From: Polytrichum commune
Lineage: Eukaryota > Streptophyta > Polytrichopsida > Polytrichales > Polytrichaceae
Direction of reading: 5' to 3'
NCBI GenBank assembly: GCA_950295325.1
Contig: OX485805.1
Span: 3,038,501 to 3,102,500, forward strand
Length of the DNA: 64,000 nt
Shown: piece after piece, positions 9,171-55,560 of the stretch
Layout: every line of letters begins with the position of its first letter
Numbering within the stretch: the first letter of the stretch is position 1
Notes under the pieces: generated by a model
What the model was told of the DNA's origin: nothing
The model's database searches: none
The model's input: only the letters and a program-made list of their open reading frames with translations
Program-made: the position numbers and the translations under genes

Positions 9171-12100
9171 CTAAGAATCTGAGCAAGTTGTGAATTTCAC
9201 CTGCAAAAGTAGTGATGGAGTATTGGTTGGAGCTGTGCTGAGCCGCCTCGCAGCAGCCCGGACGACAGGAGCTGTTGCTGGAGTCGTGGTGTTAGTTATA
9301 TCCCAAAAGCTCCGTTTCTTTGTACAATTGAGTGCACGAGACAATTGAGTGCCTGGCTTTGACGGAGAAAAAAACCTTGGCAAAGGGGGGCTCCGCGGTG
9401 GATGTTGCGGGATGTTCAACCTGCGAGGAGCAGGGTCAACAACACGGGGCCGGCTCTCCTTCGCGGCCTGACGAATTGGTGGGAGGGATGGGATCTTGTT
9501 AGATGTGTAACGAACCGGCCTAACACCCATTTTGGGGGTCACTCCCTTTTCGGACACAGGATCCAAAGCAGGTTTACAGCTTAAATCCTGTTTTTTGGAG
9601 TCAAATTTTGTATACGACGGAATAGGCTTCATGGACAAAGTTGTGGAGGGATTGGTCTGCAAAGAGAAGGGCACTCTAGAAATAGGCTGGATGGGGCTAC
9701 CGTCTGGCCTTTTCGACTTGTGGAGTGATCCGGGGGTGATGGGGTTGGGTAAAGAGCCTTGATTGGGTTTCGTGGATGGTGGTGGAGTTGCAGGAGCACT
9801 GAAAATTGTTTCTACAGCGATCGGGTTTCGGGAGGTCGGCTCCTTGCTGAGTGAGAGTCTGGAGATGGTGTGTGTCATGGTTCCAGTACCAGAGGGGGTT
9901 TTGGGTTCCCCTGACCCACTTAATAGGAGTTTTGTGGATTTAGAAATGGGGGAGCTTGCAGCTTCATTCACTGACCTTTGACACAGCTGTTGGATGATCT
10001 CATCTTTTCGCTTCAACTCCAAAGCGTGTTCCTGCTGAAGTTGAGAAATGCTGGCACTATGCTTCTCCTCTCGCCTCAATATTTCTTGCTTTGCCCTCTC
10101 CACTTCCATTTCCAGTAGTTGAATTGTCCGTTGCAGGTCTCTTATTGTTCTTTCTGATGTAACCCTCTCTGGAAACTCCTGCTCGCTTAGTGAACTATGT
10201 AGGCCACATGTCTTTCCCTACACAACACACAATAATATACAGGATATTAGCTATGATTAACATTGTAGTCATCATCTTCAAATTAGATAACGATATGACA
10301 CTCTATAAATAACAAACTTGGAGATTCAAGCTGCATACATGGGAATACGAGGGAAAAGTCGGTTTCCTAGTTTTTGGAGAAAAGCATCGTACTACTTTCT
10401 ATTTGCATATAATCTTTTGCATCAAGAAATAACGGGAAATACTCGCTATGTTTCAAGAAAACCAAGGCGAGGTATGACCCAAGCGCAACCAATTTTTTAA
10501 TCTATTCAAAAAAATGGATCGGCCGCGACCTGAAGATGTTAGCATACCTGTACACGAGCATCAGTGGATGGCCTCAAAAATTGAGGTTGTAAAGGAGTGC
10601 TGGCCATCAAATTTGGAGTTAGCGGAGTTCCAGGGCTGTCCTGCATTGACAAACTGCCTTGTTGTGCAAGTACAAACTTCTGATGCAATCGGGCTAATTG
10701 GAGACGAAGCTGTTGATTATCCTTTTGCATATCTGTCAATAGTTTTGTCCTGTCCTCCATAGTGTCCGGGACATCCAACTCCTCATGTCCTTCATTGACC
10801 TGCAACCATCAGATTAAACGCCATGATCCACATTGTGATGCCAATAAAACAAAATGTTCATCATGTATTCACATTTTGTATTGACGAGATTGATTCAAAG
10901 ACTCGGATATGTAGCATCAGATCACTTCACAAACACTTCAACAATACCAACACCGGGGTGGCCAATCCCACTCGAATGTTGGGAACCAAGAGATGTAGGA
11001 AAATCTTAAGAAATTGGAGTCAGCTTTAGTTTGAAGTCTTCGAGAATTGAGCAAAAGTACATGACATAAAGTAACAAGGTTCATTTGATAACAGTTTTAA
11101 TAGCTACCTCAGAAATGGCTTTCTACGATGAACTATTTTCGTTTGAACCGCATCACAACTCACCATATGGAAGGTACAACCTCAGAGACAATATCTTAAA
11201 GTTGGCCACAATCTCGTACTCAAATAGTTTAATACATGTTCTGATTTCTGAAGTGGATGACAATTCTAGTGGTTTGCAGACATGGTAGCTAGAACTGTAA
11301 CGAGATGAGTGCCCAACAAGAGAACTTGGGTGCTCACCTTTGTTCGTATCTCCTTTGCCCTGTTTGCCCAGTGAAGAGTGTTTTGAGTTTCTCCAAATGA
11401 ACCGTTGTTGGGACTTATGTTTGCAATCATAGCAGTCCGGCAAGACCCTCCCAATGAGTCCTGAATTTATAACAAGGCAGTGTCAGCCAATTTGAAATCT
11501 CCTCATGCCAATGTGGTCTCTAGAGGATCAAGAGAGAAGCCTTAGATGTGTAGGGTTTAGGGTCTAAGGAATAATCATAAATTTAAGGTACTGGACGTGA
11601 AATTACTCAAAACAGTGTGAAATGAAAGATTGGGAGGAGCCTGACCTTTAGCAGCTGAGTGAGCTTAGAATTTCTGAATGGGATGTGTTTCTTCCCTTCA
11701 CAAAGAGCATTGATGCAACTACTCAATGCAAGAAGTGACCTATTGATGCTGGCTCCTTCCACGGAACGTAGACTTCGTTGATCGGTGACAAGTGCACGCT
11801 CTGATCCTGCCAAATCAATGAGGGAAAGCTTGCCCGCGCGTACCACTGTGCATGTTTCTTGCTGCACTTTGTACTCAGCGACCACCTGCACCCACTCCAT
11901 CAATGAGTTTGAGAAAAAAAAGACACAAGCATTGCTAACCCTCTAAATTCAAAGAGAAATTGCTACTTAATACATTGAGTGTATCTTCATAAACACGTGT
12001 ACACCTAGTAATCTTTGAGCAAAGTAGACCCCACAATCTGCATCAAAATGCCATAACAACAAGACCTTCAAGCAGGACAAACCTGTAAAATGGCATGTGA

Positions 12101-15100
12101 ACGAGATGAGGTCTCATTGGCACGAGTGGGCTCCGTTGTCCTGTTCAAGTTGCCCCTTTGCAGCAGCGTCATGACCTGTAACAGAACAAAGGATGTCCAT
12201 TAAGTGTTCAAGTAAATTTGTGAAGCATGCATGGCCAGACTGCAAGAATTCCACGTAGAACATGGAAGAACTATTTCATAGTAGATAGTCCGAGGAGACC
12301 GTACCTCGTCAGCTGAGTATGCTTGGTATTGTGTGAGACCAGCAGCAACGATACCCTGCAATAAGTCAAGAGTGTCAATGCTGAGAATATGTTAAATAGA
12401 TCACCAAACCTTAGGAGAGGATTGTGGTTATGTCCACCCATTCCTGGAACAAAGACCACCAATCCCGACGTTGCATTCATTGGCCTAACACGTTGTACAA
12501 TACTTTTGACTACAGGAAGATGAAGTTCATGAAGGATAAATCAGAGTTTCGCAGTAGTGTCGGATGAATGAATAGCTTGTGGCATCACTATAACCCCAGA
12601 TTCCCAAAGAGGGGATTAAGACAGGTACCTGCTTGGCATCTTCTCGAAGGACGAGGGGTCGTCCCGGGGAGAGAAGATCACGAACACTTTCATTGTACAC
12701 TTCGAGGTACGAGAGCCGCACAACATGGTGTCCGTCTCGACTCCTCTGCTTGATCTTGGCAAACAAGTCCTTCAGGGCGAGCACCATGACTCCCGGGTTT
12801 TGCACTGTGCCCAACATCGTATGGGTCTTGCCGGCGCCAGTGGCACCGTAACAGAACACCGACCCATTCCTCCCTTGTAGGACTCCTTCCACCAGCTCAG
12901 CCGTGCTGCACATCCATTGCAAACAAAGTATGTTGGATTCCATTACCCACGCTGACAAACAAATGCCTCCCGGCGGCAATCTGGAGCACCAGAGTGTTCA
13001 AAATGTGTTAAAGCTATGTGTGGCTGGCCCTTCACAGCATACACATCGACCTTCATGTGAGAGTGGAGGCTACTGACCTTGTGTTGTAGACCTCTTGCTG
13101 TGAAGTGTTATCAGAAAAGGAAGCATCGAAAGCAAAGTGGCGACCCCGCACCCGTTTCAGCCTCAAGTAGTCGGTTTCTAGAGCAAATTCCGTGAGATAC
13201 ACATCCCTCTTGTTCACAATGCGCACGCAACTGCGCGATCCTGCGTCCTTTTCTTTCCTCGCCATGGGCCTCAGGCGCACGTACACCATGATACGTGTGC
13301 CCACGCCTGCTCCGCCGTCACTCACGCTCTCCAGATCTTCGCTCACCGCATGGCGACCCTTGAGTAACCCAGATGATGGCTCCCTGAGCCCCGATTGCAA
13401 GCTCATTGAAAGAGACAATCTGCTGACCATCCAACACTAATGTTTATGTCGCCGACACCTCCTTTGAATCTGAGAAGCCCCTGACTGCTTCATTTCACAA
13501 CACCCTAGGCTAATCTCAAGCACCAGAAATGCTATAGAGTTTTTTTTCTTTCTCCCTCGTTAAAAGAGGGAGGAGATAGTAGCTTTGCTCCATTCTCGAT
13601 GGCCATTGACATTTTCCTTAACAAATATCGTACTTCCAACCCAGCAACCCAAATCATGTCACCATGACCACTATGAATTCGAGAGTCTATGTTTCATTAA
13701 ACAAGGCCCAAGAAAGTTTTTAACACCCAACAATGTTGTATGATCGTTATTGAGAAAAAATTAATGCTCACTTTGTTGTTTCAATTCTCCAGCTCCATCA
13801 CTCAAAGCTTAAGGAGCTGAGTAGCTTTGCTACACACTCGAAGAACATCGTACAATTCTATTCAACAAGTGTTGTGCTCATTTCATTAAAAATGTGAATG
13901 TATTGTAAGGTGAGCGAGGGTCACCTTCGTTTGAGGGTGATATTTGGGGTTGACCACATTGAGGTGAGGTTAATCCCAAGTGAGTTAATATCAACGAAAA
14001 ATGTCGGCTGGTCGTCATACAACACAACATTTTTGGGTGTTCTTGGGAAAAAAATTCCTTACTCGTTCAGTTCTTTTGATCTCCAGCTACGTCTATCAAG
14101 ATGGCGATTCCGAGTAGCTTCTCTCAGGGCATTCTACAGCCCAGTAATGTGCTTATACTTATCAAATATGTCAATGTAATGTATGGTGAGCGAGGGTCAC
14201 CTTCGGATGAGGGTGATATTGGGGGGTTGAGTGACCACACTGAAGTGAGGTCAATCCAAAAATAACCTCACCTCAATGTTGCAATTGAGTTCATAAGTCC
14301 CAAAAATGTTGTCTGATCGTCATTGCGAAAAAAAATTATTACTCACTCAGTTCTTGCGATCCTCCAGCCTACATTTAAAGATGAAGGAGCTGAGTAGCTT
14401 CGCTGCACACTCGAAGAGCATTCTACAAGTGTTGTGTTCATACTTAACAGAAACATGAATGTAATGTATGGTGAGCAAGGATCACCTTCGGTTGAGGGTG
14501 ACGTCGGGGGTGACCATATTGAGGTGAGGTTTCGGAGACTTCAAGAGCGAGGCGGCTTCCTCCTGCCTGCTCAGGGCCTCCACCTCCTTGACCCAGTTGT
14601 AAGCATCCAGAACTTGAGGGCTATAGATTCCCCCCGCCCTGGTGACACCAACAGGCGAGGCTTCATTCTCCTGCCTTTCTGGAAGATCCTTGCATTGGGT
14701 TAGCAGCGCCCTCGACTTGGCAGCATTCTGCGACGCTTGGCGTACTAGCCTGGGAGCAGGGTTGGCCAGCTGAGAGCTTCGCTGCGTCTGCTGAAATTTG
14801 GGGGTTGGAGTTTCCAGTTGCTCTCTTGGTGTAGCTTGAAAGCCATCGCCAATTCCAGTTCCCCCCGCAGCGCCACCCAGACGGCTCACTCTCTCCTTCA
14901 AAAGAGCCAGGGATCTGGAGGCTGTCCTATTCTCTGTGTCTGCATTGTTGTTGCTGTTGATGTTGTGTTGATGCTTCCCATTCTCTCGTCCTCCATAATC
15001 CTTGTTACCGTTGCTCTCCTTGCCATCTCGTCGCACATTCTCACAACCAAGTAAACTCTCTTTCCTCAACTTCACCTTGTTCACCACCGGACTTGTGGCT

Positions 15101-31439: not shown

Positions 31440-32262
31440 ACACGGGTAGGGTAATTTGTCTTGTAGTTTGTCTTGTGATCTATAAAATGAACCCTCACCC
31501 ATAATAATCCATTGAATCATTCTATGTTGATGAGACAAAATTTTAACTAAAGAAAAACAAACAAGAATATGTACCTCATCGATCAAATGTTGATACCTTC
31601 GTCAAATCTTCATCAATTCAAATAAATGATGAGTCTACCTTGTAGCGCATCTTGTGATCGTAACAATAAGTCCTCACCCATAAAAGTTCATTGATCAATG
31701 AGGTCTCAAAGTTCAACTAAAGAAAAACAAACAAGAATATGCACCTCATTGATCGAATGTTGATATCTTTCTCAAATCTTCGTCAATACCTTGTAGTGCA
31801 TCTTGTGATCATACCAATAAGTCCTCACGCATAGAAATCCATTAATTTGTTTGCTACCAATGAGATCTCAAAGTTCAACTAAAGAAAATCAAACAAGAAC
31901 ATGTACCTCATCGATCAAATGTTTATATCTTCCTCTGAAAATCTTCATCAATTTAGACAAATGATGAGTCTACCTTGTAGTGCATCTTGTGGTCATAACG
32001 ATAAATCCTTACCCATAAAAATCCATTAATGTTTTTGCTACCAACGAGGTCTCAAAGTTCAACTAAAGAAAAACAAATAAGAATATGTACCTCATCGCTC
32101 AAATGTTGATATCTTCCTCAAATCTTCATCGATTTAGACAAATGATGAGTCTATCTTGTAGTTCGTTTTATGATCCCTAATATGGATATTTTCCCATAAA
32201 AAATTATCATGTTGTTTGTTGCTAATAGCATCTCAAAGTTCAAGTAAAGGAAATGAACAAGA

Positions 32263-32293
<31 letters not shown>

Positions 32294-32500
32294 AATGTCC
32301 CGATGCTAATATCTTCGTAAAATAGTCATTAAATTGGAGGAGACCGAGTCTTTATTGTACTAATCTTGTGATCTTTGAAATGAGATCCAACCCATAAAAT
32401 TCCATTGAGGCATTTGTTATTGATGAGCTCTCAAAATTTAGCTAAAGAAAGAAAAAATTAATTAATAGCTCAATGTTAAGATTCAATTGCTGCCTCAAAT
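31440..32500. repeat. Tandem array, unit about 160-200 bp, six copies
   Basis: The marker AACTAAAGAAAA or a variant recurs at 31545, 31715, 31877, 32061, 32242 and 32440. Other shared blocks are CCTTGTAGTGCATCTTGTG, CCCATAAAAATCCATTAAT and ACCTCATCGATCAAATGTTG. Copies 1-4 are very similar; copies 5 and 6 are more diverged. An (AT)14 run lies in copy 5 at 32263-32290. Non-coding minisatellite or satellite seed. Confidence 0.85.
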
Positions 32501-35917: not shown

Positions 35918-37050
35918 CAGGGCATAAAATTGACACCCTGGGGGGTGTATTTTGCTTCCTAGAGTGTCCTAGGACACCCAAATCTCAAACAGGGTGTCCC
36001 CGAGGACACCCAAAAATCCTACAAGGGTGTCCTTTTTACACCCAAAAAAAATACAGGGTGTCCCCTGTACTTGTAGGGCCTATCAGCGTATATGTTTGAC
36101 AAAGTTTTTGCAAGTTTTTCTTTTTTGACACGCAAAAACTTGCACAAAAAAAAATGCACGTCAATTGACACGCACATTCTAGAAATTGACACGTACTGTG
36201 ACTTGTGAAGAAAAAAATCACACGTTTGGTGAGTTTGGTGGTGATGGTACCCTCCATGGGTGCAAGGTGATTGCACAGGCCTATGTGGTTAAGGTGATAG
36301 AATCATTGCAGCAACGATTCCCTGATTTGAAGCTCTTCAATGCAACTAAGCTATTTAGCCCCGTCTGTTTTTCAACAGACTTGACACTTCTTCATCGAAA
36401 TGCTCGTTTATGGCTTCAGAGTTTCATTGACCACTTCTGCACTAATGGAGGGAATCTTTTTGATGAGCGTGGTTTAAAATCAGAGCTTCGAGGTTTTTTG
36501 GATACACTTCATATTTCATGTGGTGGTCTTAAAATGCACCAAGCTTGGATGGTTTATTCTTCCAATTTGGACTATGTTGGAAGATATCCTCATATGACAA
36601 AGTTGTGGCAAGCTGTTCTTGTAATTCCTGCTAGTACATCTTCTTGTGAGAGAGGATTTTCTACTCAAATTCATATTAAATCTACTTTACGGTGTAGTTT
36701 GGTATTAGAGACTTTGGAAGCACAAATGAGAGTTGCAATGGCAAAAATCCCCATAGAGGCCATTGACTTTGAACAAGTATGGGTAAAGTGGTGTGCTATG
36801 AAAGGCCGCCGCTTGTCGGTTTGATTTGCATTGCAAGTTATGATATGTAGTGATTTTTTTGATTTTTAATTGAAATTTTGAAATGATATTATATATTTTT
36901 CAAAATTGTACCTATTTTGACAAAAAAATAAAATTTAAGAGAAATTTATGAGGACACCCAAAAATTGGAGCAGGGTGTCCTTGGGACACCCAAAATTTGG
37001 GACAGGGTGTCCCCTGGAAATTTGGCTAGGGTATCAAATTTTATGGCCTG
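35918..37050 (+). mobile_element. hAT transposon, deletion derivative with intact target duplication
   Basis: The element is 1133 bp. It starts CAGGGCATAAAATTGACACC and ends with the inverse of CAGGCCATAAAATTTGATAC. The 8-bp GCAAGAAG at 35910-35917 is repeated exactly at 37051-37058, the length expected for hAT. Subterminal regions carry many GGGTGTCC / GGACACCC motifs in both orientations (35978-36065 and 36950-37015), as hAT transposase-binding regions do. The interior keeps only the 3' part of the transposase gene (next entry). A perfect target duplication suggests a fairly recent move. Confidence 0.92.
36186..36824 (+). pseudogene. hAT transposase, C-terminal part with dimerisation domain
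   Basis: An uninterrupted frame of about 212 codons ends at 36824. Its C-terminus reads IPASTSSCERGFSTQIHIKS and then a Leu/Glu-rich helix, the hallmark of the hAT C-terminal dimerisation domain (family hATC). The frame opens at a TTG and has no sensible initiator, and the BED zinc finger and most of the RNase-H-like catalytic core are missing, so it is a 5'-truncated remnant. The retained part has no stop or frameshift, in contrast to the LINE and pogo remnants nearby. Inside the element it runs in the same direction as the terminal CAGGGC end. Confidence 0.85.
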
Positions 37051-38775: not shown

Positions 38776-39994
38776 TAAGCACGAGTAAGTGCTTCATGTG
38801 ACAACTCTACAAAAGATATGGGAGTCTATGAATACTTAATTGCATGTTCGTATGGGCAAGCTGGCCCCTTTTGGTCTCCTTTAACTTACTTCCTCCAATT
38901 TCTCTTCAACACTGGGCTATGCACAAGTGATATTAGAGTGACATCAACACTTGTTTCATTACTATAAAATTATGCACCTTCCTAGGTTTTAGGAACAATG
39001 CCATGTGCTCATCCCCCCCCCCCCCCCCTCCAACAAAGCCCAAATGTTTCCCAAATCCTTTAACTTTGGGAGAGAGGGAGGGAGACCAATAAACCCATTC
39101 TCGCCTTGAGAACACTAAGTGACCAAGGGCTTTAGAGAGTGTTCTCCCTCTCAATAGGTAATGGTTGGCCAATGAAAATCTTATGATACTCGTGAAATTT
39201 ATGGGTGTCTTGAGCATTTGGTAGTGGCAGAACCTTTTTAAGTGAATCATCAAGGGAACCATTTTAAAGAGTTTGTTGGAAATGGTCTTGGCAACAAATA
39301 ATAAGTATTATGTTAATTATAATACTATGAGATGTTTTAGATGACGATTATAGATGTAAAATAATAGTCATAGCGATACAAACCTTGTAGACAAGCTTGA
39401 GTCTTGTTCGTTTACTAACACAAGTACATGGACCTTGAGAGGTATCAGAGGAATATTACAAAGGGCAGTGTTTGTATCCTAGTTTCCAAAGTCAAAATTT
39501 TGTGTTCAAATCAACGCCAACAAATCTTGCATTATAAGTATATATTGATTCTAAGGATATACATCATGTTAACATCAAGCTCATGTGTTGGTTATAGGTC
39601 ATCTACTAAACTTTGAACCCTTATAATTTTTAATATGAAACTCAAATAAAATGTACTCTAAGGTTGAGGTATCCATAGTTGACTGGATCCAATTAACCAC
39701 TCATTAGGGTCACGTAATCCTGATGGATGAGATCTATATTTTTTAGGCGAACATAGTCAAGGTTTATGTGAGGATGGTTTATGTGTGTGGTCAAATTTGT
39801 AACAATTTCCATATTCATGAAAAAATAATCAATTTTGTTTTTACATTCTCCTTGGAATTTATTTCTCTTCGCAAGAAAAATAATTCCCCGCGATTACTCC
39901 TCCTAAACAGATGCAAACTCTCTTACTTTATTGGTATAGATGCCTCAACCTTAGTGTGTTGGAATCCCCTTTTAGACGCGCTAATGAGAAGCAT
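38776..39994. other. Intergenic with a poly-C run
   Basis: A run of 16 C lies at 39013-39028; the minus-strand open frame through it (38933-39262) would give a glycine tract and is an artefact. Nothing else is recognised before the host-gene mosaic. Confidence 0.4.
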
Positions 39995-40990
39995 CTTAAA
40001 ATTGTTTGAAACAAATTGTAATCTTTTGATCCCTTTTATTTTCTTCGTCATGTTTGTTGTGACTTTCTTGATGAGCTATGCGTTCATTGACCACTCTGAA
40101 CTTTGCGGACTAGGAAACTGATCAAGAATCTACTTGAACTTGAGCCGATTTTACTGGAAAATCTTGGTTTTCCTTACGCAAGAGTTCACATGAGAGCTAA
40201 GGCGATGTGATGTCATATGGGTGCAATGGTGCATTGGTCACTTGACAGACCACGACTTTTGTGGAATTCTTCAAACAAAGTCGCTCGAGTACTCCCTCCC
40301 CACTAACTAGATGTACAGTTTGTGCTGCACAATCACTTGAAGGGGGTTGACGGATCTTTGAAGCATCGAGGTTTTGTGACATCTGTTTCAGTATGTCCGA
40401 CATTTCGAGGGGATTTGAGCGTTCAATTTTTCTGTTTTACGTTCCAAAGATATGCCTTTGGTTGCTTTCAGGTTGGTCTAAAACCGGGGGGATTTTTTTG
40501 TCTCGAAGGAAAACCTTGCAAAGAATAACTGTAGGATGTGAGTTTCACAGCATTGCGTATGTCGCTATCTACGGAAGTCTGATTAAACTCTTATTCTTTT
40601 TTTTAGGTCCACCATGTCCTAAGATGATGGGGTCTGCTATGTGATCAGTCTCTGTCGTATAAGAGAATGGTGTGTTTTGCATCTCTGTGACCACTGGCAA
40701 TGTCTGGTATTTCTCGGCTAATCAAGTTAGAACTCGGCGTCATGCCAATCAACCACGAAAAATTAGAGCAGAGAATCACCGATGAATGGAGTATGGATCA
40801 TTGTCACGGGTTCCCCAAATCAATTGTACCAATGGGATCAATGACATTACACTAGTAAAAGATTTAATTCATGGGCTGAAAGCCATTCGCCAGGATGAAG
40901 GTTTTTGATAATCGGTTGATGTGTTCAATGTTGCGTATTGTGACTCGGACCTGGAACTTAATGTGATCCAAGTATTAAGCGCTTCTTTGT
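39995..40990 (+). pseudogene. N-terminal methyltransferase (NTM1-like) pseudogene, introns retained
   Basis: A diverged, same-strand copy of 53525-54735, i.e. intron 4 to the 3' flank of the intact NTM1 gene. Exon 5 is clear at about 40180-40290 (GTCATATGGGTGCAATGG..GCATTGGTCACTTGACAGACC), but an extra T in GACTTTTGTGG shifts the frame. Exon 6 is at about 40470-40528. The start of the exon 7 region (GGTCCACCATGTCCTAAGATG) is present, most of exon 7 is deleted, and the 3' half of exon 8 with flank follows from about 40725. Exons 1-4 are absent. Introns are kept, so this is a DNA-level duplication. Confidence 0.85.
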
Positions 40991-41282
40991 TCTTCAACTG
41001 ACCAATAAGATCATGCATTTCATCCGAAGTGGTAACATTTGTGATGTGGCAGGGATGGTTCAATTCAAGTATACCAATTCCAAGGCCTTCTCTAGGCTGT
41101 TATCCCAAGGAGTGTTCTGTGTTTTGGAAAACGAAAAGTCGACTTCACTGACAATGGCACACTTCACAGCCGCACTACATTTTGCTACACTCTTAATTTG
41201 CTTCATAAATTGGGTTAAGAAAAAATTTGGTCTTTGTAATGTGTGGAATAGCGGTTGACAAAGCGGCATGAGAGGACGTGCG
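40991..41282. other. Unassigned part of the mosaic
   Basis: Open frames cover most of this stretch on both strands (41013-41258 plus; 41060-41269 minus), yet neither product is recognised. Given its neighbours it may be another captured host fragment. Source unknown. Confidence 0.3.
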
Positions 41283-41475
41283 TGACAGAGAGGGAGAGTT
41301 CACGGGAGTCCTTGCACGAGCGAGAACGAGCAGATCTTCTTCTGCCATACTAGACTATATGTTAGAAAAGTAAAAGTGTTTCCCAAACCACCAACTATCT
41401 GGAGACTTCTGGTTCCTTTCGAGCGATCCTTTTGGTCGAGTTGAAAACCTTGGAACCCAAGGAATCTACATTGTA
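41283..41475. repeat. Copy of the upstream region of the protein kinase gene
   Basis: The stretch with GTTAGAAAAGTAAAAGTGTT, CTTTTGGTCGAG and CCCAAGGAATCTAC matches 45095-45338, the 5' flank of the kinase gene, in the same orientation but with the TATA-like block decayed. It contains no kinase coding sequence, so only the promoter side was copied or kept. Confidence 0.7.
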
Positions 41476-41479
41476 AAAA

Positions 41480-41838
41480 AGTATACGTAAAGAATTATAT
41501 TATGACACATTATATGAATTGTAGTGATGGTCCAGCTAAGATAGTTGAGGTGTCCAACGAGGATTGTTTAGGGTCCAACTAGGATTTATATCCACGTGGA
41601 TAGTGCCATGTATGCATCAAGGAGAGAGAACAAGATGCCCAGGATTCTATTCGAATATTCCCGCCGATGGAGCCGTGTCCACCGAGTATACAACCTGCAC
41701 AGAAGTTAGCTTTAGTTAGTTCTCGTATTGCAATTTTGTAGCGATATAGATAGTGTTTTTTGTACAAGATTGTAACAATCAATAAAGCATGAGTTTATCC
41801 ATTCTATTTTTATCGAGTAATTAGCATTTCCAACATAC
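41480..41838 (+). mobile_element. Possible solo LTR (copia-like)
   Basis: The right end reads CATTTCCAACA and is preceded by AATCAATAAAGCATGAG, the layout of a polyadenylation/R region followed by a short U5. A TGTAGTG near 41519 could be the left end. I see no exact 5-bp target duplication and no primer-binding site or internal region. The call is tentative. Confidence 0.35.
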
Positions 41839-41934
41839 ATCACACAAAATCCGGAGCAAATTCAGTTAATGAGGTCCGGACTCCTCAGGATCTCTATCAT
41901 GAAATAATTCTAAAACGCTGCATGTGAAGATCTT

Positions 41935-42897
41935 GAAGTCTGGCCGTGCATGCTTCACATAATTCACTTCATGAGCATCCTCTGCTATGTTGCAGGTGAT
42001 GACTTCGCGGCAAAGGGGCAACCTATTTGAATGGAACAAACAAGCTCATTCGTGACAATGAGACCTCATGTCGTTCACATGCCATTTTACACGTTTGTTT
42101 CGCTCAAAGTCCCTGTTGTTGTGGCATTTTGATGCAGATTATGGGTCCTACTGTTGCTCAGAGGTTACTGGGTGTACCGCTCTGGCACTGCAAAATTTCA
42201 TACGGGTTTAACGAGAGGCACTCAACGTAAAACCGTTTTTCGTGAATAAAGAGGGTTAGGAGTGATTGTGCCTTGGATCTTTCTCAAACTCCTTAAATTG
42301 CTGCAGCGAGAAACATGCACTGCAGTACTAGCCGGCAAGCTTTTCTTCATTGACTTGGTTCAAACTAAAGAGGTCATCGAAGAAAACCATTTCCGAGATA
42401 GCTTACAAAGCTATTAACAGAATGAACCTTGTGACCAAATGTCATGACCTCTTGCTGGATTCTCCAAGTCCTTCAAGTAAAAGCTGATTCGAATTTTTGA
42501 AGGATTTTCCAACATTTAAATCTCTTGGTTCCCATGAACATTCGAGCGGGCTTGGACACAGGTGTTGGTAAGTTCGTTGCTTTAAAATGGCAGCAATGAT
42601 TGACGTAACCGTGAAAGGTATTTCCCAAAATGACTTTGGAAAGTTTTTCTTTTTTTAAGAATATTAATTTGTGAAGTCTTTAAGCACCAGGGACTGATGA
42701 AGTGATGTGATGCTACATGTCCGAGTCTTTGAATCAATCTCCCCAATACAGAATAAGAATACGTGATGAACATCTCCTCAAAAGTTTTGTTTATTTGGCA
42801 TCACAATGTGGGTTTTGGTGTTTAACCCGGTGGCTGCAGGTCAATGAAGGACATGAGGAATTGGATGTCGCAGACACTATGGAGGACAGGAATTGTC
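41935..42897 (+). pseudogene. Kinesin-8 pseudogene fragment (intron 4 to exon 8), inverted
   Basis: It runs on the plus strand, opposite to the intact kinesin gene. In order: end of intron 4 and exon 5 (GACAATGAGACCTCATGTCG, about 41997-42097; switch I region), intron 5, the first 60 bases of exon 6 (GAGAAACATGCACTGCAG..GGCAAGCTTTTC, about 42302-42358), then a jump into intron 7, and finally the start of exon 8 (GTCAATGAAGGACATGAGG, about 42840-42897), where similarity ends abruptly. Most of exon 6, intron 6 and all of exon 7 are deleted. Exon 5 has lost the Leu-Leu-Gln frame. No function is expected. Confidence 0.88.
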
Positions 42898-43994
42898 ATA
42901 AAAGCATGATTGCTCATTGGTACCAATACCTACAAGTTGGGTAGGACTCGGTGGTGTATTATACATTATTTTGACATGGTTGCTGAAAAGCGGCAACTTG
43001 AATCATCTCATTAAGAACCAAAGCTCTCGTGAGTGTATCCTTTGAATGTCTGCGCGGTGAAAACTCTCTGCACCACGTAAATTAGCCAACAATTGGCCAT
43101 AAGATATTGAATCGACATCTATTCGGTGCAGCCATTCTGAGCCAGGAAACATTGGACCATCTCCTAAGTATTTAGCACGAGCTTATTTAGTTTCATGCAC
43201 AACTAGACAAGGAAAGAATCTAAACATCTATCAAATATTTTCAAATCACAATCCTCACCTTTGAAACCAGCCACTAAAACAATCCACTGTAACCTGGAAT
43301 TTGAGAATACATATATATATATATAGAAGAAGTAATGTATTGAACTAATGAGGCTTGTTGTCTCCTGTAAGTTACTTGATTGTTGTGGGATGAGAGTTGT
43401 CAACACTGCTCAAAAGATTTCAACTATGGTTTTCTTCCGGAGAGATCATCTATCTCCATTAACTTATAATACGAACTCACCAAAAGATGTAGTCATCAGA
43501 CAGGATACTGACACAAAAAAGCAAGACAAGTTTAGAGGGACACAAGACATGTACTAGGTAGTCTATCTACACATGTACACAACAATCTGGTAGTTTATTA
43601 CTATCCTTCTACACGCTTGGTAACAGCTACTCAAAAAGATACTCAGCTTTTGGGAATGATACATGCCAGAGTGTGCACAGCTTCGGGAAACACTTCAATG
43701 ATTTTGATCCAACCATACCGTGTGTGCACTTCACCAACATAGTATTTCGGAGAATGAAGCAAAATTAATTATGAAGGTATGCAAGGTAGACTTGCCTAAC
43801 AACAATAATCTGAACACCTAGTATTATTTGAGTGATATACAGTTATAGAATGAATTGCACAGAGCTGCCCATGCCAGCTTGGTCTTCGACCAGAGGTTCC
43901 GGTGCTCCTGCAAGCTTGCCGGCCCTGGAATTTGTGGTACATCACTTGTGCTTTGTGGTCCGACTTTGTAATTTAAGATGAGGTCCATGCGACA
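42898..43994. other. Intergenic / kinase 3' flank
   Basis: A short (AT)n run lies at about 43309-43324. No gene is recognised. The part right of about 43570 is probably the 3' untranslated region of the kinase gene, but no polyadenylation signal is convincing. Confidence 0.4.
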
Positions 43995-44996
43995 TCACCA
44001 AGGATGTTTGCAACAACCCGAATTGCGGATCCAACAAAAATCTACAAGGTGCGTAGCCCTGAGCCTCTTTTCAGGATCGAACTGCAACATTCCTGTGAGC
44101 AGGTTTCGCTCACAATGGTTGAGCTTGCACCATGGCTCCGATGTAAAATCGAGCACTTCATCGATTTCCCAGTCAGTGTCTTCATCTTGCGTTTTGTCCT
44201 TCTTCCATGGCAAGAATTTAGGGTAATGCCCTGTCAACATTGTGGCCAATATGATTCCGGCGCTCCAGATATCCACAGGGGCGGAGTATGGTTCACCCCT
44301 CAGCAACTCGGGGGCTTGGTAGCCTAGGGTGCCTACACGTCCCCTGCATGGAATCGGAGTTGCTGTGCGGTCGCATTGGAATCGAGCCGCAAGTCCAAAG
44401 TCAGCAAGTTTGAAGGACGATTCTGTGATGACGTTGTCGGATGATGAGACGAGGATGTTGCAGGGCTTGATGTCCCGATGAGCGATGCCCAGACTATGGA
44501 TATGACGCAGTGCGCTCAGAACTTGCCTCATCACGACGGCCGTCAAGTGGACCGGAATACGGGAATCACATGAGAAAGTTTTCAAGAATGTGCGGAGATC
44601 ACCGCCTTGACACAACTCCATAATCATGTGCACATTGGAGGGGCCCTCCGATTTTTTGATGAACTGCACCACATTGGGGTGGCCCGAGCATAGTGCGTGA
44701 ATCAAGGCCTCTCGCCTGCATGCCTCTAGCCGCTCACGCCTTGCTTGTGGGCTTCCTTTGAGTTGGACAGTCTTGACGGCAAGCATTTGCTTGCTGCGTT
44801 TGGATGTGCAACACCTCACAGTGCCGAAGCCGCCCTTGCCCAGAACTTCCGGGAGAATTCTGAAATCAGAGATGCGTGGCGGCTTCTTTGTGGCAACGCC
44901 CGCTTGTTGCGGCTTGACATTTAGTTCAGGCTTGTTGTCCAGGTTAACGTGGTGAGCATCGGCGTCTATGTTTGACAGCACAATTACGCTCGCCAT
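43995..44996 (-). CDS. Serine/threonine protein kinase, single exon
   Basis: A 333-aa protein kinase, likely cytosolic because no signal peptide or membrane segment is visible. The first 44 residues are not conserved. Kinase motifs are all present: glycine loop GKGGFGTV (53-60), Lys75 in AVKT, a candidate alpha-C Glu at 96, catalytic loop HRDIKPCN (173-180), DFG (199-201), GTLGYQAPE (222-230) and DIWSAG. It is therefore predicted to be active. The HRD/KP..N form and the domain pattern indicate Ser/Thr specificity. It most resembles the CAMK-like group by eye, but the subfamily and substrate are unknown. The protein ends soon after the last kinase helix, so there is no C-terminal regulatory domain. 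The ATG at 44996 is used; the GTG two codons upstream is not a likely start. The gene has no introns, unlike its neighbours. Confidence 0.88.
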   Translation of the reverse strand: MASVIVLSNIDADAHHVNLDNKPELNVKPQQAGVATKKPPRISDFRILPEVLGKGGFGTVRCCTSKRSKQMLAVKTVQLKGSPQARRERLEACRREALIHALCSGHPNVVQFIKKSEGPSNVHMIMELCQGGDLRTFLKTFSCDSRIPVHLTAVVMRQVLSALRHIHSLGIAHRDIKPCNILVSSSDNVITESSFKLADFGLAARFQCDRTATPIPCRGRVGTLGYQAPELLRGEPYSAPVDIWSAGIILATMLTGHYPKFLPWKKDKTQDEDTDWEIDEVLDFTSEPWCKLNHCERNLLTGMLQFDPEKRLRATHLVDFCWIRNSGCCKHPW

Positions 44997-45094
44997 TAGC
45001 ACGTTGTTTTTTCTTTTTCTTTCTTTTCAATGTTAATATTCGCTTGTAATCGGACGTTGTCCTTGCTTCCACCTCGATCACACAGAATGGGGGA

Positions 45095-45338
45095 GAGAAT
45101 GTGGGAGCGACAGCGTTAGCTCAAGCTCCAGCAACAGCGCGAGCGCTAGCTCATGCTCCAGCGTGCGAGAGCGAGAGCGAGAATGAGCGCGTGCTGCTTG
45201 GCCATTCTGGCCTATATATGGGAAAAGTAAAAGTAAAAGTGTTGCCCAAGCCGCCAACGGGTATGGAGGGTTCCGGAGGCTTCGAAACGATCCTATTGGT
45301 CGAGACTTGCGAGACTTGGTAACCAAGGAATCTACGTC
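45095..45338 (-). promoter_or_regulatory. Upstream region of the kinase gene with a TATA-like box
   Basis: About 100-340 bases upstream of the kinase ATG. On the minus strand CCCATATATAGGCC (about 45207-45220) is a good TATA-like element some 215 bases before the start codon. The stretch between has many GAGCGAG / GCTCCAGC-type repeats (45120-45190). A diverged copy of this region is at 41283-41475. Calling it a promoter is inference from position and the TATA-like box. Confidence 0.45.
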
Positions 45339-45355
45339 AGTTAACTGAACTTCAC

Positions 45356-45397
45356 ATAACTAATTAACTAATTAACTAACTAACTAACTAACTAATG
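45356..45397. repeat. (TAAC)n microsatellite
   Basis: About nine units of AACT/AATT tetranucleotide, the last five perfect. Confidence 0.8.
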
Positions 45398-48300
45398 AAC
45401 CAATTAGTGGGTTGGGCCTCTCCATTGATGTAGCAAGAGGCTAATTAACTAATAAACCACTTCTCTAATCCCCACAACCACCACAGCTTGCACATTATTG
45501 CCACTAAGGCGGATATATAAATGGAACATAAGCTGATTCGGGCAGACAAAGTGGCATGAAATTTGTGCAGTATAATTATTCGGAGATGGAGTAGAGGAAA
45601 TTGCAAGTTGTTTCATAATTTTATTCCCATGTATGTAATTAGGTACATTTTCTCAAAGACGCAAGTAAGTCGAACGCCCTTCTTGTATAGAAGAGTCTCC
45701 CCAATTTGAGCATTAAAGTATATTGGTCTGGATACGCATGCAGACAAAATGGTTAGTTCAGTGGGCACCCAAAAGTGAATGCACTTCATAATTACACTAT
45801 ACACTCTGTAATATTACACTTGTGGGAACCAAAGTTCGCATGATAGTAAGGAGGTTTGCAACGTTATCATGAACGTGTGATGAAAGAGAACTGTGAATAG
45901 CATGGAGAACCCAAATAAGCTTTTCAAAACTAACTTGTGTACAAACTCTCACGAAAATCATAACAAAGTATAATTTGATTTGTGTCTCGACCCTCCAAAG
46001 AAGTAACAAATGTACAAACTTATTTTAAAGACCTAGAGTAAATACAAACACATTAGAATAATTATGCAAAATGCTCGAGCACTTTTGGGATTGTGTGTTC
46101 GATGCTTCCATCACAAGTAAAAAAGATTGTGCAGAAAATAACGGCAATCGTTTTCCCATTGTGGTTATTTCAACCACCCTAATTTGCAGTTGCTAAACAA
46201 CTGCTTTTTTTCTTTTTCTTTTCCGACTACAATTTTATTTTATTTTAAATTGGGCGTGCAATACACCATTTCAAAGGTATTTTCAAGAAATTTTCAATTT
46301 TATATTACAAGCCCCCAAATTCCTAAAATTTTATTTGATAAACCAAGAAAACAAATATGCATTCATTTAGCGACTGCGGATCATGGTGGTAAAAAAAACC
46401 ACAACGGGAAATCGACTATGGATTCTTTTCACAATGTTTTCTACTAGTGCATGTACTTGGCCGTATTTGAACCCTTGCATCAACCTCTTTCTTCAATACA
46501 TGGACATCATTAGAATACTCTTTAATTCAAATAAAATGGTTGAGTAGTGATCACATTGGAAAGAAATTCTAAATGACTTGAAATTAAAGCAAGGGTGTTT
46601 TGAAACATCAAATTGTTTTCTTTAAAGATTTAGTAAGTCGATTATACCATTCAAAGTTCAAAAGCATATGCCAGAAAGTAAACAACATGGTCAGTGTAGG
46701 AAATTGATCATTCAATATACCGATGCCTTATGTTTTTCAGACATTTGTATTTATAGATTTGTGAGTCAAATACCTTCCAAATACAAAGAAATTTGTGTGT
46801 TTAATGCCTAAAGGTTTGACATCTTTGTGGTAAGAAAATAGTGAAGAATACAAAGAGCAACCTATCAAAAATAACAATCAACCATAGATGGTCGTTTTAG
46901 ATCTACCCATGCATCCAGTTGAAGCTTCTTGACCAAATCTCACATTTCATGACCAAGCAAATCGCATAATTTCAAAAAAAATCCACTCAATCTATTCCAT
47001 TAAAGTAATATGTATCCGCAATTTCTTGGTAGGCAAAAGATTTGGTAGATCTTGTGACCAACTCAAAGTTGCTTGGTTACCACACTAGTTCATATCATGC
47101 TAAGAACATTATCTGTAATGAAATTCAAAATAATGTTTCCAAGTTATCCCTATCCCAAGTATATATGTGACATGGAGTACATGAATGTATATTTAGGTGT
47201 TTTTGGATTTACCCCAACACGCCCAAGCGTTTTCATGTACCTTAATCCTAAAATAATGTGAAAGTTGCAAGGCCAAAGAGAAACATCTTTGTAGCACATT
47301 TTTTCTTCTTTTATAGCTCACATAGTCACATCAAGACATCTAATGTTTCAAAGTCATGTGATATCCATGTATCAATACACATTAGTTTAAAGTTCTTATG
47401 TTGTGTAAGATATAGCATCATGACGTTCAATTTTTAATTTGACAACGTGATGCTTGGATCACCAAAAACAACAATTAGCAAAATCATGAATTGCAAAGTT
47501 CTAAGCGGAAAAAACAAATTTCAATATTTTGGACACCACAACATGCAATATGCATTTAAGAAAATTTTAAACAAATTCCAAATGACCCACTAGCCTTTGC
47601 AAACCTTCTTCAAATGACAAATGCAAAAATTTAGAAATTCTTGTTGACAAATGGGAAACACAATCTCAAATATTTGAGACAACATAGTCGGTTCCAAGTA
47701 TCAAGAACAATTTCAAAAAAGAAATTTCAAGTGTTTAATTTTTTTCCAAGTTGTGTTCACAATATTGTATTTATTGTTAACAGCCAAAAACAAAAATAAT
47801 GATTTTTTGAAACCACAAAGTTGATTCCACATTTTCATAATATTTTAAGAAATAAAATTCAAATGACTAAGCATCGCATTAAAAATATTCCAAATGATCA
47901 TAAAAATTATAAATTTGTTCACAAATGATCATTCCAAATTAGAAATTAGAAATTCCAACACAAAATTTGAAACTTTTGAAAACAGAAAGTTGGTTCCAAA
48001 TTTTGAAAACGATTCAATATAGTATGCCTTACATGGAAAACAACGCTTTTAAAGCTTCCCAAACAATGTCCAAAAACTTGGAATTTGTCGTTTAGATGCA
48101 TAATACACACATTTCAAATTTTTGAAACCACAAAGTATAAATTGACCGTACTCTAATTTGTTGAAGTCCCCTTTCAGTCACTAATGAGAAGCACCTTATA
48201 CTATACCGATCTAGTAATAGTAAACAATACTACATGTTTGAAGCAACAATTTCAGGGCTGGGGATTTGTGGCACTCATGTATTTTCATTAGTGTAAGTTC

Positions 48301-49110: not shown

Positions 49111-49379
49111 ATCACATAGGGGATCGCTATTTCCACACCTTTTTTGGCTAGATTCACACCTTTTTGCTGGTTCGGTTGGCGTTGCACTGAGGCGCTACAT
49201 ATAAGATTCTTCATGGTGCATCCGGACCGTTGATCCACCAAGGCCCATCCGAGGGCGTCAATGATCCTAGGTGGCGGTGGGGTGGGGGGCGGGGGTGGTG
49301 CTTGCCACCAAGGCGGGGTGGGGCCGTGGGCCTCATGTCTTTTTTGGGGAGGCCGGATTTAGGGTGGTGTCGGGCCTAG

Positions 49380-49535
49380 TGGCTAGGCGGGCCCAGTGGC
49401 TAGGCCTACTTATTATATAACTAGTTGGTCACCCTTACTCTACTTACTAAATAACTAGTTGGTTAGCCTTACTCTACTTACTAAATGACTAGTTGTTAGC
49501 CTTACTCTACTTACTAAATAACTAGTCATTTAGTA
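49380..49535. repeat. Tandem units of about 35 bp in the left arm
   Basis: The word ACTCTACTTACTAAAT recurs about every 32-35 bases (49437, 49472, 49506) with ACTAGTTG spacers. The matching array in the right arm at 50420-50600 has five units, so the arms differ in unit number. Confidence 0.75.
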
Positions 49536-49852: not shown

Positions 49853-50419
49853 AAAAACCTCGCACACACACACACACAGTTCAAATCGCTGACCTCGCAC
49901 ACACACACACAAAGTTGCTTGATCTGCGACACTTGAATTTCAACGCTGCTTGCGCGAGAGATTGAGAGAGTTGCTTGATTTGCGAGACTGTGACACTTGA
50001 ATTTCAACACAGCGAGTGAGCGAGCGAGAGAGAGAGAGAGAGAGATGCTTCACAGAGAGAGAGGAGCTGATGAGAGAGGAGTTGTGATAAATGGTATTTG
50101 TAAAGATTGGCGGGAAGGGAGTTAGGGCTATTATTGATATCCGTCTATGTGCCACCCAAGAGCCCCGAGTATTAGCCTAAAGATATGTACTTAGGTCAAC
50201 TAATTTCCCAATTTGAAGAAGGATGAATGGCTAAAATCCTCTCTTTTAAAAACTTTGTAGGCAAAATTTCCTACATGTTTTTTATCACATAGGTTGATAT
50301 CCTATGTTTTTAAATTGTCCATAGGCTCTTTGTCCTACACTTTCAAAATTTTATAGGCTAAGTCACAAATTTTGTAGGCTGCATTTACACTAGCCTTAGG
50401 CTCTTGGCGGACTATGAAG

Positions 50420-50600
50420 TAGAGTAAGGCTAATTAACTAGTTATTTAGTAAGTAGAGTAAGGGTAACCAACTAGTCATTTAGTAAGTAGAGTAAGGCTA
50501 ACCAACTAGTCATTTAGTAAGTAGAGTAAGGCTAACCAACTAGTTATTTAGTAAGTAGAGTAAGGGTGACCAACTAGTTATATAATAAGTAGGCCTAGCC
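50420..50600. repeat. Tandem units of about 35 bp in the right arm
   Basis: Five units containing TTAGTAAGTAGAGTAAGG, separated by CTAACCAACTAGT-type spacers, face the three-unit array in the left arm. Confidence 0.8.
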
Positions 50601-50887
50601 ACTGGGCCCGCCTAGCCACTAGGCCCGACACCACCCTAAATCCGGCCTCCCCCAAAAAGACATGAGGCCCACGGCCCCACCCCGCCTTGGTGGCAAGCAC
50701 CACCCCCGCCCCCCACCCCACCGCCACCTAGGATCATTGACGCCCTCGGATGGGCCTTGGTGGATCAACGGTCCGGATGCACCATGAAGAATCTTATATA
50801 TAGCGCCTCAGTGCAACGCCAACCGAACCAGCAAAAAGGTGTGAATCTAGCCAAAAAAGGTGTGGAAATAGCGATCCCCATCACATA

Positions 50888-51931: not shown

Positions 51932-54538
<2,607 letters not shown>

Positions 54539-54929
54539 TTGTTCACAAATTGTCATGGGTTCCCAAATCATTTGTACCAATTGTATCAATGGCAGCAGAC
54601 TACAGTAGTGATTATTTATTGCAGGCTGAAAGCCATTTCCCACAACCAAGATTTTCCAGTATTAAGTGAAATTGTTGTGTATTGGGACTTGGACCTGAAA
54701 ATGAATCTGTGAGTATTAAGCATTAAGGAGGTTGCTTAAGGTACCTACACTGATATGCACAATTAGGTTGCCTTTGCGAATAGGTTTCCTCTTTCTAAAC
54801 CCATGCAAAGCCCCTTGGGTCAGTACCAAATCACAAAAATTAACATATTTGTTCATTCATCCGTAGTGAAATTATAAGTCCTATATTTTGTTACTGTTGT
54901 AATAAATAACCAAAATAGTATGAATTTTT
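54539..54929. other. Methyltransferase 3' flank
   Basis: Contains the presumed 3' untranslated region. Similarity to the pseudogene at 39995-40990 continues to about 54735, so the duplication extended beyond the stop codon. Confidence 0.45.
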
Positions 54930-55560
54930 GTGTATTTTTGCTAATTAGCGTGGGGAACCTAAAACTTTACGTCTCTAGAAATCGCATGAGACCAAAACAT
55001 ACCCAACGTGAGGTGAAAGTACGGCAAGCATTTATAACGTGTGTCACAAATTCTCATTTAATGCTTGTGGAGTGTATCTCATTTATACAATGCGTTTACA
55101 ACTTCCGTTTCCAAGGGTTTCTTGAGAAGTATAAAGACAAACAGAAGGCACCATCGAATGATTCCATCCTTACATTTAGAAATTCAAAGTTGAACTTGTT
55201 GAACTTTGTTGAACATGATTGGAACGACGTGCATGATCAGTTTAAGTGCACGAGAATCTTCACCTTGTGAAAAACATGTAGATATAATTTCTAAAACTGT
55301 GGCAAGTGGCAACAATTTCGCTTCAGATTTACTAATCACCTTTAAACATGTTAAGAGTCATTGCCTCGAGTGCCCGGAGACAGGAAATTATTGCATAAAA
55401 CAGCACCTCTCATTCATCCAACATGAAAGCCCTGAAATAGGATGCAGTCCGGAAGTTATCTGACACCGAAATTAGCCTCAGACCAAGTCATTTTAGGTGA
55501 CTCCACCACAAACCTAGAGGATCGAGCTTTATGTAGAAAGGATGAGAATTGCGCACGAAA
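54930..55560 (+). repeat. Interspersed repeat, copy 3
   Basis: Starts with TTTTTGCTAATTAGCGTGGGG, recalling 33009 and the MITE at 29642. The stretch around CACCTCTCATTCATCCAACATG matches 33290-33310. The 116-aa frame at 54920-55270 lies in this repeat and is not considered a gene. Confidence 0.5.

What the first reader, a model, noticed from the sequence alone, without database searches (positions are those of the whole stretch)
39995..42897. Mosaic of pieces related to three host genes from this window
Within 2.9 kb lie, in order, an NTM1 pseudogene (exons 5-8 with introns and 3' flank), an unassigned open stretch, a copy of the kinase upstream region, a possible solo LTR, and an inverted kinesin fragment (intron 4 to exon 8). 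The intact sources are at 53.5, 45.2 and 12 kb. Introns are kept and break points are abrupt (for example inside kinesin exon 8 at 42897). Multi-gene fragments with introns are what Helitrons and Pack-MULEs carry; a local series of duplications and rearrangements would explain that all sources are neighbours.
Basis: partly seen in the sequence, partly recalled or inferred. Interest (0 to 1): 0.72.

Follow-up and report, generated by a model that had tools for sequence, protein, structure and literature searches.

The report
Scrapyard of copied neighbouring gene pieces
A short stretch of a plant-like chromosome is stitched together from old, decayed copies of parts of three neighbouring genes, most likely by repeated local copying and faulty repair rather than by a gene-carrying jumping element.

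Summary
The mosaic is real. Window 39998-40980 matches an NTM1-type methyltransferase gene at 53.5 kb, 41318-41469 the kinase upstream region at 45.2 kb, and 41840-42891 (inverted) a kinesin-8-like gene at 12.3-10.7 kb: best pieces 520, 73 and 242 bits, against 37 for the best of 200 shuffles. Introns are kept. The NTM1 piece has a stop and frameshifts, and its exons diverged half as much as its introns (K80 0.088 vs 0.183), as expected of a dead DNA copy of a constrained gene. NTM1 and kinesin ages agree (K about 0.2).

No transposon ends were found. Most close relatives lie within about 200 kb on contig C3, in a second patchwork of kinase, kinesin and YY1-like pieces; exceptions include NTM1 pieces on C1 and C5. 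In one relic (rA) a kinase-promoter piece runs straight into 35 bp of kinesin exon in the mosaic's orientation, suggesting a shared old junction. The 'solo LTR' has one other genomic copy; the 'open stretch' looks like old NTM1 3' flank. Best reading: recurrent local duplication joined by non-homologous repair or template switching. Known kind, modest interest.

The parts
39793..39957 (.). End of a dispersed repeat directly left of the mosaic
   Evidence: 32 of 45 rows of the genome search are matches to 39900-39972 only; local copies at 83682 and 127794 (of the joined region) diverge after about 39957
39955..39972 (.). Eighteen bases like the flank of the YY1-like gene 150 kb away; a possible fourth source, unproven
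   Evidence: 17 of 18 identical, score 31 against a maximum of 25 for 500 random 400-bp pieces; tested after it was seen
39998..40980 (+). Decayed NTM1 fragment with introns: stop codon, frameshifts, two internal deletions of about 140 bp
   Evidence: not intact relative to 53528-54721
40651..41194 (+).
   Evidence: 76% to C5:17726829-17727368, which also matches 54486-54708 at 69%; that 40980-41194 is old NTM1 flank is inference
41231..41477 (+). Kinase-promoter relic in the orientation of the intact kinase gene
   Evidence: 72% to 45175-45335 over 41318-41469; other relics rA and relicB share the left boundary 41231
41482..41840 (.).
   Evidence: 93% to C3:3243043-3243422, no other match to this part
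41840..42891 (+). Inverted kinesin-8-like fragment with introns, lacking about 660 bp of its source and cut inside exon 8
41482..45450 (.). Block that has a younger inverted copy 160 kb away (C3:3240114-3243422) which carries the kinesin relic and a second open kinase frame; the copy lacks 42468-43707 between TCCAA repeats
   Evidence: 95% (41482-42467), 94% (43708-43845), 89% (43905-45450)
9171..13436 (-). Source gene: kinesin-8-like; exons read by eye from open frames, only the part relevant here
   Evidence: PF00225 7.7e-30 in one exon; nearest solved structures KIF19, kinesin-8, KIF18A; open frames
43995..45026 (-). Source gene: protein kinase, open frame of 343 codons stop to stop
   Evidence: PF00069 6e-59; nearest solved structures CDPK and CaMKII type
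52730..54721 (+). Source gene: NTM1-type N-terminal methyltransferase (extent from matches, not a full gene model)
   Evidence: PF05891 6e-37 for exons joined by hand
54738..54962 (.). Dispersed repeat just past the point where NTM1 3' flank similarity ends
   Evidence: 37 of 43 rows of the NTM1 genome search fall here

Best explanation
The stretch is a non-coding scar made of DNA-level copies of parts of neighbouring genes. Most likely, breaks or stalled replication near this spot were repaired by copying pieces from nearby templates and joining them without extended homology (template switching, or synthesis-dependent 'filler' repair); later deletions and further local duplication reworked the result. 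It probably has no function now. Shown: the sources and orientations, kept introns, decay of the NTM1 piece, compatible ages, a second patchwork nearby, and a younger inverted copy of the right half. Suggested: a kinase-promoter/kinesin junction shared with a second relic. Inferred: the repair pathway, and whether the three pieces came in one event or a few.
For: Mixed orientations and local donors. Introns kept in NTM1 and kinesin pieces, so no RNA step. NTM1 exon K80 0.088 against intron 0.183, a stop and frameshifting indels. Pooled ages 0.183 and 0.207 with overlapping intervals. Relic rA: kinase-promoter piece followed at the next base by 35 bp of kinesin exon (94%), same relative orientation, kinase similarity ending within a few bases of the same point; the genome-wide kinesin search also returned this place. 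Further relics beside an older YY1 piece. TCCAA repeats at the deletion in the younger copy. No transposon ends.
Against: The old joins are too decayed to read microhomology, so the pathway is not shown. The rA junction rests on 35 bp. The mosaic's kinase-promoter piece is closer to other relics (K80 0.15) than to the intact kinase (0.278), so it may not have been copied from the intact neighbour. In the younger patchwork the two halves differ in divergence (0.051 [0.036-0.066] against 0.024 [0.019-0.030]) and their join shows no clear microhomology, which speaks against one event there. Kinesin exon and intron divergence hardly differ (0.185 and 0.218). NTM1 pieces also reached C1 and C5, so the process is not strictly local.
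Confidence: 0.6

Rival explanations
1. Independent accumulation: each piece arrived by its own small duplication at a locus that tolerates insertions, with no multi-template event.
For: Unequal divergence of the two halves of the younger patchwork; internal deletions and a younger copy show repeated reworking; the kinase-upstream point estimate is the oldest, 0.278.
Against: NTM1 and kinesin ages agree, and the kinase-promoter/kinesin adjacency recurs in relic rA.
Confidence: 0.25
2. Decayed duplication of one block holding kinesin, kinase and NTM1, shrunk by deletions.
For: The three genes are neighbours and all have a piece here.
Against: Kinesin is inverted while NTM1 and the kinase piece are not, and the order NTM1-kinase-kinesin is the reverse of the sources, so more than one rearrangement would be needed as well.
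Confidence: 0.08
3. A Helitron, Pack-MULE or similar element captured the pieces and inserted here.
For: Multi-gene fragments with introns are known cargo of such elements (general knowledge; passages of PMC3445842).
Against: No inverted terminal repeat above the null (score 20; null 95th percentile 25), no CTRR plus hairpin near either end, no dispersed copies of the unit. The younger copied block also shows no such ends in the same test (inverted-repeat scores 16-19; a score of 31 for the larger composite comes from a GA tract).
Confidence: 0.05

Closest known systems
Gene-bearing filler DNA at repaired double-strand breaks in plant genomes (Wicker et al. 2010, seen only as cited in PMC3445842 and PMC6097286)
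   Same: Gene fragments with introns copied into a break site without carrier-element ends
   Different: Several local donors in one 3-kb stretch, in both orientations, with related relics nearby; old joins unreadable, pathway not shown
FoSTeS/MMBIR-type template-switching rearrangements (search listing; reference title in PMC7407515; otherwise recalled)
   Same: Juxtaposed copies from nearby templates, in mixed orientation
   Different: Ancient and decayed; diagnostic join microhomology cannot be read; single-event origin unproven
Pack-MULE / Helitron gene capture
   Same: Fragments of several genes, introns kept
   Different: No element ends detected, unit not dispersed, donors mostly local
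Tandem or segmental gene duplication followed by decay
   Same: Local dead gene copies
   Different: Order and orientation do not match one duplicated block

Membership tests
Helitron | 3' CTRR end preceded by a hairpin | tested here: not met
   None in 42700-43100 (+), in 39850-40150 (-) or inside 39990-42900 by a strict pattern; decayed ends would be missed
Helitron | Insertion between A and T, 5' TC end | not tested
   Ends too decayed to place
Helitron | Related copies of the unit at dispersed sites | tested here: not met
   No other place holds the unit; relatives are partial and mostly on C3 3.05-3.24 Mb (one search scored 40 of 680 candidates)
Pack-MULE | Long terminal inverted repeats | tested here: not met
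   Best end-to-end inverted match 20, null median 19, 95th percentile 25
Pack-MULE | Target-site duplication | not tested
   No end to anchor it
Processed (RNA-derived) copy | Introns removed | tested here: not met
   Intron sequence aligned in the NTM1 and kinesin pieces
Templated insertion / filler-DNA repair | Copies from more than one donor joined directly | tested here: met
   NTM1, kinase-upstream and kinesin pieces within 2.9 kb
Templated insertion / filler-DNA repair | Microhomology or short filler at the joins | tested here: inconclusive
   Old joins decayed; the younger YY1/kinase-block join shows no clear microhomology; TCCAA repeats flank a deletion in the younger copy
Single block duplication | Order and orientation of the sources kept | tested here: not met
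   Order reversed, only kinesin inverted
Solo LTR (41482-41840) | Member of a repeated LTR family | tested here: not met
   One other copy in the genome, in the duplicated block; inverted-end score 20, at null level

The most novel reading that the evidence does not exclude
C3:3.05-3.25 Mb is a lasting gene-shuffling nest: the same donors (kinase promoter, kinesin, YY1-like gene, NTM1) were copied and recombined in at least two periods (K about 0.2 and about 0.02-0.06). It made chimeras, duplicated an open kinase frame, and sent the front half of NTM1 to C1, so it may be a local source of new gene structures.
Probability: 0.25. Interest if true: 0.5.

Novelty: new member of a known kind. Interest (0 to 1): 0.3.

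Why it matters
It shows that a Helitron-like look (pieces of several genes, with introns, in 3 kb) can occur without detectable transposon ends, and gives a dated local example of how chimeric gene scraps form. If the nest reading holds, sister genomes could test directly how often such patchworks arise and whether they seed new genes.

Tried and rejected
Solo LTR: rejected as a repeat-family member, since 41482-41840 has one other genome copy. Helitron and inverted-repeat ends: not found. Single block duplication: order and orientation do not fit. The repeated sequence beside the younger copy was first taken by me for a transposon; its open frames are C2H2 zinc fingers resembling YY1, so I treat it as a duplicated host gene (Pfam zf-C2H2 passed its cut-off in one of three frames; the YY1 name rests on an ungapped match to 1ubd among many zinc-finger hits and on recall). 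A single event for the younger patchwork: weakened by unequal divergence. A fourth source at the left end (18 bases like the YY1 flank) is left open. A genome-wide search for the YY1-like gene did not complete, so I cannot say whether its relics are only local. No background rate of such mosaics elsewhere in the genome was measured.

Full report
WHAT WAS CHECKED. The window is C3:3038501-3102500 of an unnamed 408-Mb genome in 64 contigs; that it is a land plant is my inference from gene content and was not tested. The NTM1 piece at 39998-40980 follows 53528-54721 in order and orientation. The kinase-upstream piece at 41318-41469 follows 45175-45335. The kinesin piece at 41840-42891 follows 12338-10748 inverted. 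In 200 dinucleotide shuffles of 39995-42897 against the window the best score was 37.4 bits, against 520, 73 and 242 for the best match of each piece.

SOURCES. The kinase is an open frame of 343 codons from stop to stop, PF00069 at 6e-59; one kinesin exon gives PF00225 at 7.7e-30. NTM1 exons joined by hand give PF05891 at 6e-37. Solved-structure searches list KIF19, kinesin-8 and KIF18A first for the kinesin exon and a calcium-dependent kinase, CASK and CaMKII for the kinase. Full gene models were not built.

DEAD DNA COPIES. The NTM1 piece keeps introns, has a stop in one exon (reading EFT*ELRRC) and exon indels of 1, 4, 1 and 3 nt. Exon K80 is 0.088 (157 sites) and intron K80 0.183 (427 sites). 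A ratio near one half is what a neutral copy of a constrained gene should show. For kinesin the two values are closer, 0.185 [0.127-0.246] and 0.218 [0.171-0.261], so the argument is weak there. The kinesin piece lacks about 660 bp of its source, including frames that I read as coding.

AGES. Pooled K80 is 0.183 [0.152-0.215] for NTM1 and 0.207 [0.172-0.248] for kinesin; the kinase-upstream piece against the kinase gives 0.278 [0.189-0.381]. Subpieces scatter more: 0.156 to 0.274 in NTM1, 0.127 to 0.260 in kinesin. Global alignment gives somewhat higher identities than BLAST, so absolute ages are soft.

WHERE ELSE THE PIECES OCCUR. Search with 39900-43100 gave 45 rows (40 of 680 candidates scored). 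Thirty-two match only the repeat end at 39900-39972; of the other 13, 11 are on C3 (the locus, its sources, relics) and two are NTM1-related pieces on C1 and C5. Search with 41190-41860 gave 9 rows: 8 on C3 between 3.079 and 3.244 Mb and one 51-bp match on C1. Search with kinesin 10900-13440 gave 14 rows: the source, three rows in the mosaic, three in its younger copy, five exon-sized matches on C1, one on C6, and a 35-bp match on C3. Search with 42892-45460 gave 20 rows: the kinase, its second copy (two rows), four rows of local relics including the mosaic, a 70% match on C2, and 12 matches of 35-71 bp, 11 of them in the repeat-rich upstream part. Search with NTM1 gave 43 rows (40 of 850 candidates scored): 37 are a repeat at about 54738-54962 just past the end of NTM1 similarity, and 6 are the gene itself, the 96% C1 copy of its front half, three rows in the mosaic and one short match on C3. 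The C5 piece is missing from that capped list, so other weak matches may be missing too.

A SECOND PATCHWORK. The window plus the next 200 kb holds further relics. Kinase copy 2 at C3:3240635-3241663 is open and 94.5% identical in protein. Beside it lie the younger copy of the kinesin relic and a copy of a YY1-like zinc-finger gene whose other copy is 13 kb away (96.3% by BLAST; K80 0.024). Older YY1 pieces (K80 0.212 and 0.194) lie near. Kinase-promoter relics lie at C3:3218416-3218632 (rA), 3237840-3238015 (rC, two in tandem, directly after a YY1-flank piece) and 3239877-3240035 (relicB). In rA the kinase-promoter piece is followed at the next base by 35 bp of kinesin exon (12828-12794, 94%), in the same relative orientation as in the mosaic, and kinase similarity ends within a few bases of the same point. 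I read this as a shared old junction; it rests on 35 bp, but the genome-wide kinesin search returned that place too.

MECHANISM. No inverted terminal repeat above the null and no Helitron-type 3' end were found. Mixed orientation, local donors and kept introns point to repair copying from nearby templates. The younger copy of the right half lacks 42468-43707 between two TCCAA repeats, a usual mark of end-joining repair; that this is a loss in the copy and not a gain in the window is inference. The join of the YY1 copy to the kinase block shows no clear microhomology, and the two sides differ in divergence (noncoding block 0.051 [0.036-0.066], YY1 0.024 [0.019-0.030]), so I do not claim one event there. 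The tree of kinase-promoter relics puts the mosaic nearest to rC1 and relicB and away from the intact kinases, but supports are 55-84 and some rows overlap little or not at all. The mosaic's promoter piece may therefore come from an earlier relic and not from the intact neighbour.

LITERATURE. I saw search listings and passages of PMC3445842, PMC6097286, PMC8277862 and PMC7407515; no paper was read whole. Passages of PMC3445842 name transposon capture and filler DNA at repaired breaks as routes by which genes are duplicated in plants. Passages of PMC8277862 describe gap filling and template switching in the making of Pack-TIRs. Wicker et al. 2010 was seen only as a citation.

VERDICT. The local-duplication reading is right in outline; the transposon reading is not supported. 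The kind of thing is known; the repeated use of the same neighbours is the part worth a sister-genome test.

Noticed in passing
L004 (C1:77360390-77363809): A young copy of the front half of NTM1 (52730-53946; 96% by BLAST, K80 0.029) lies beside exon-like open frames of another sequence in the same orientation; Pfam found nothing in the two frames tried, so a chimeric gene is only a possibility.
   Followed up: partly
C3:3240635-3241663 (kinase copy 2): Against the window kinase it shows 19 amino-acid-changing and 5 silent codon differences, with 3 of 147 fourfold sites changed, which suggests relaxed constraint although the frame is open.
   Followed up: partly
window 49119-49526 and 50471-50879: Inverted repeat at 99% identity with nested short repeats at 50417-50592; looks like a recent element or fold-back.
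   Followed up: no
window 36183-36824: Open frame with a hAT transposase dimerisation domain (PF05699, 6.6e-8).
   Followed up: no
window 31460-32456: Array of imperfect direct repeats at 72-76% identity.
   Followed up: no
window 43065-43593: Low-copy sequence between the kinesin relic and the kinase whose only relative in the genome search is at C3:3247162-3248148 (69-86%), beside the younger patchwork.
   Followed up: partly
L023 6557-7234 (-): Open frame with a mitochondrial ribosomal MRP-S33 domain (PF08293, 5.3e-14), next to an old YY1 piece.
   Followed up: no
window 13715-14531: Imperfect direct repeats (71-76%) upstream of the kinesin motor exons.
   Followed up: no
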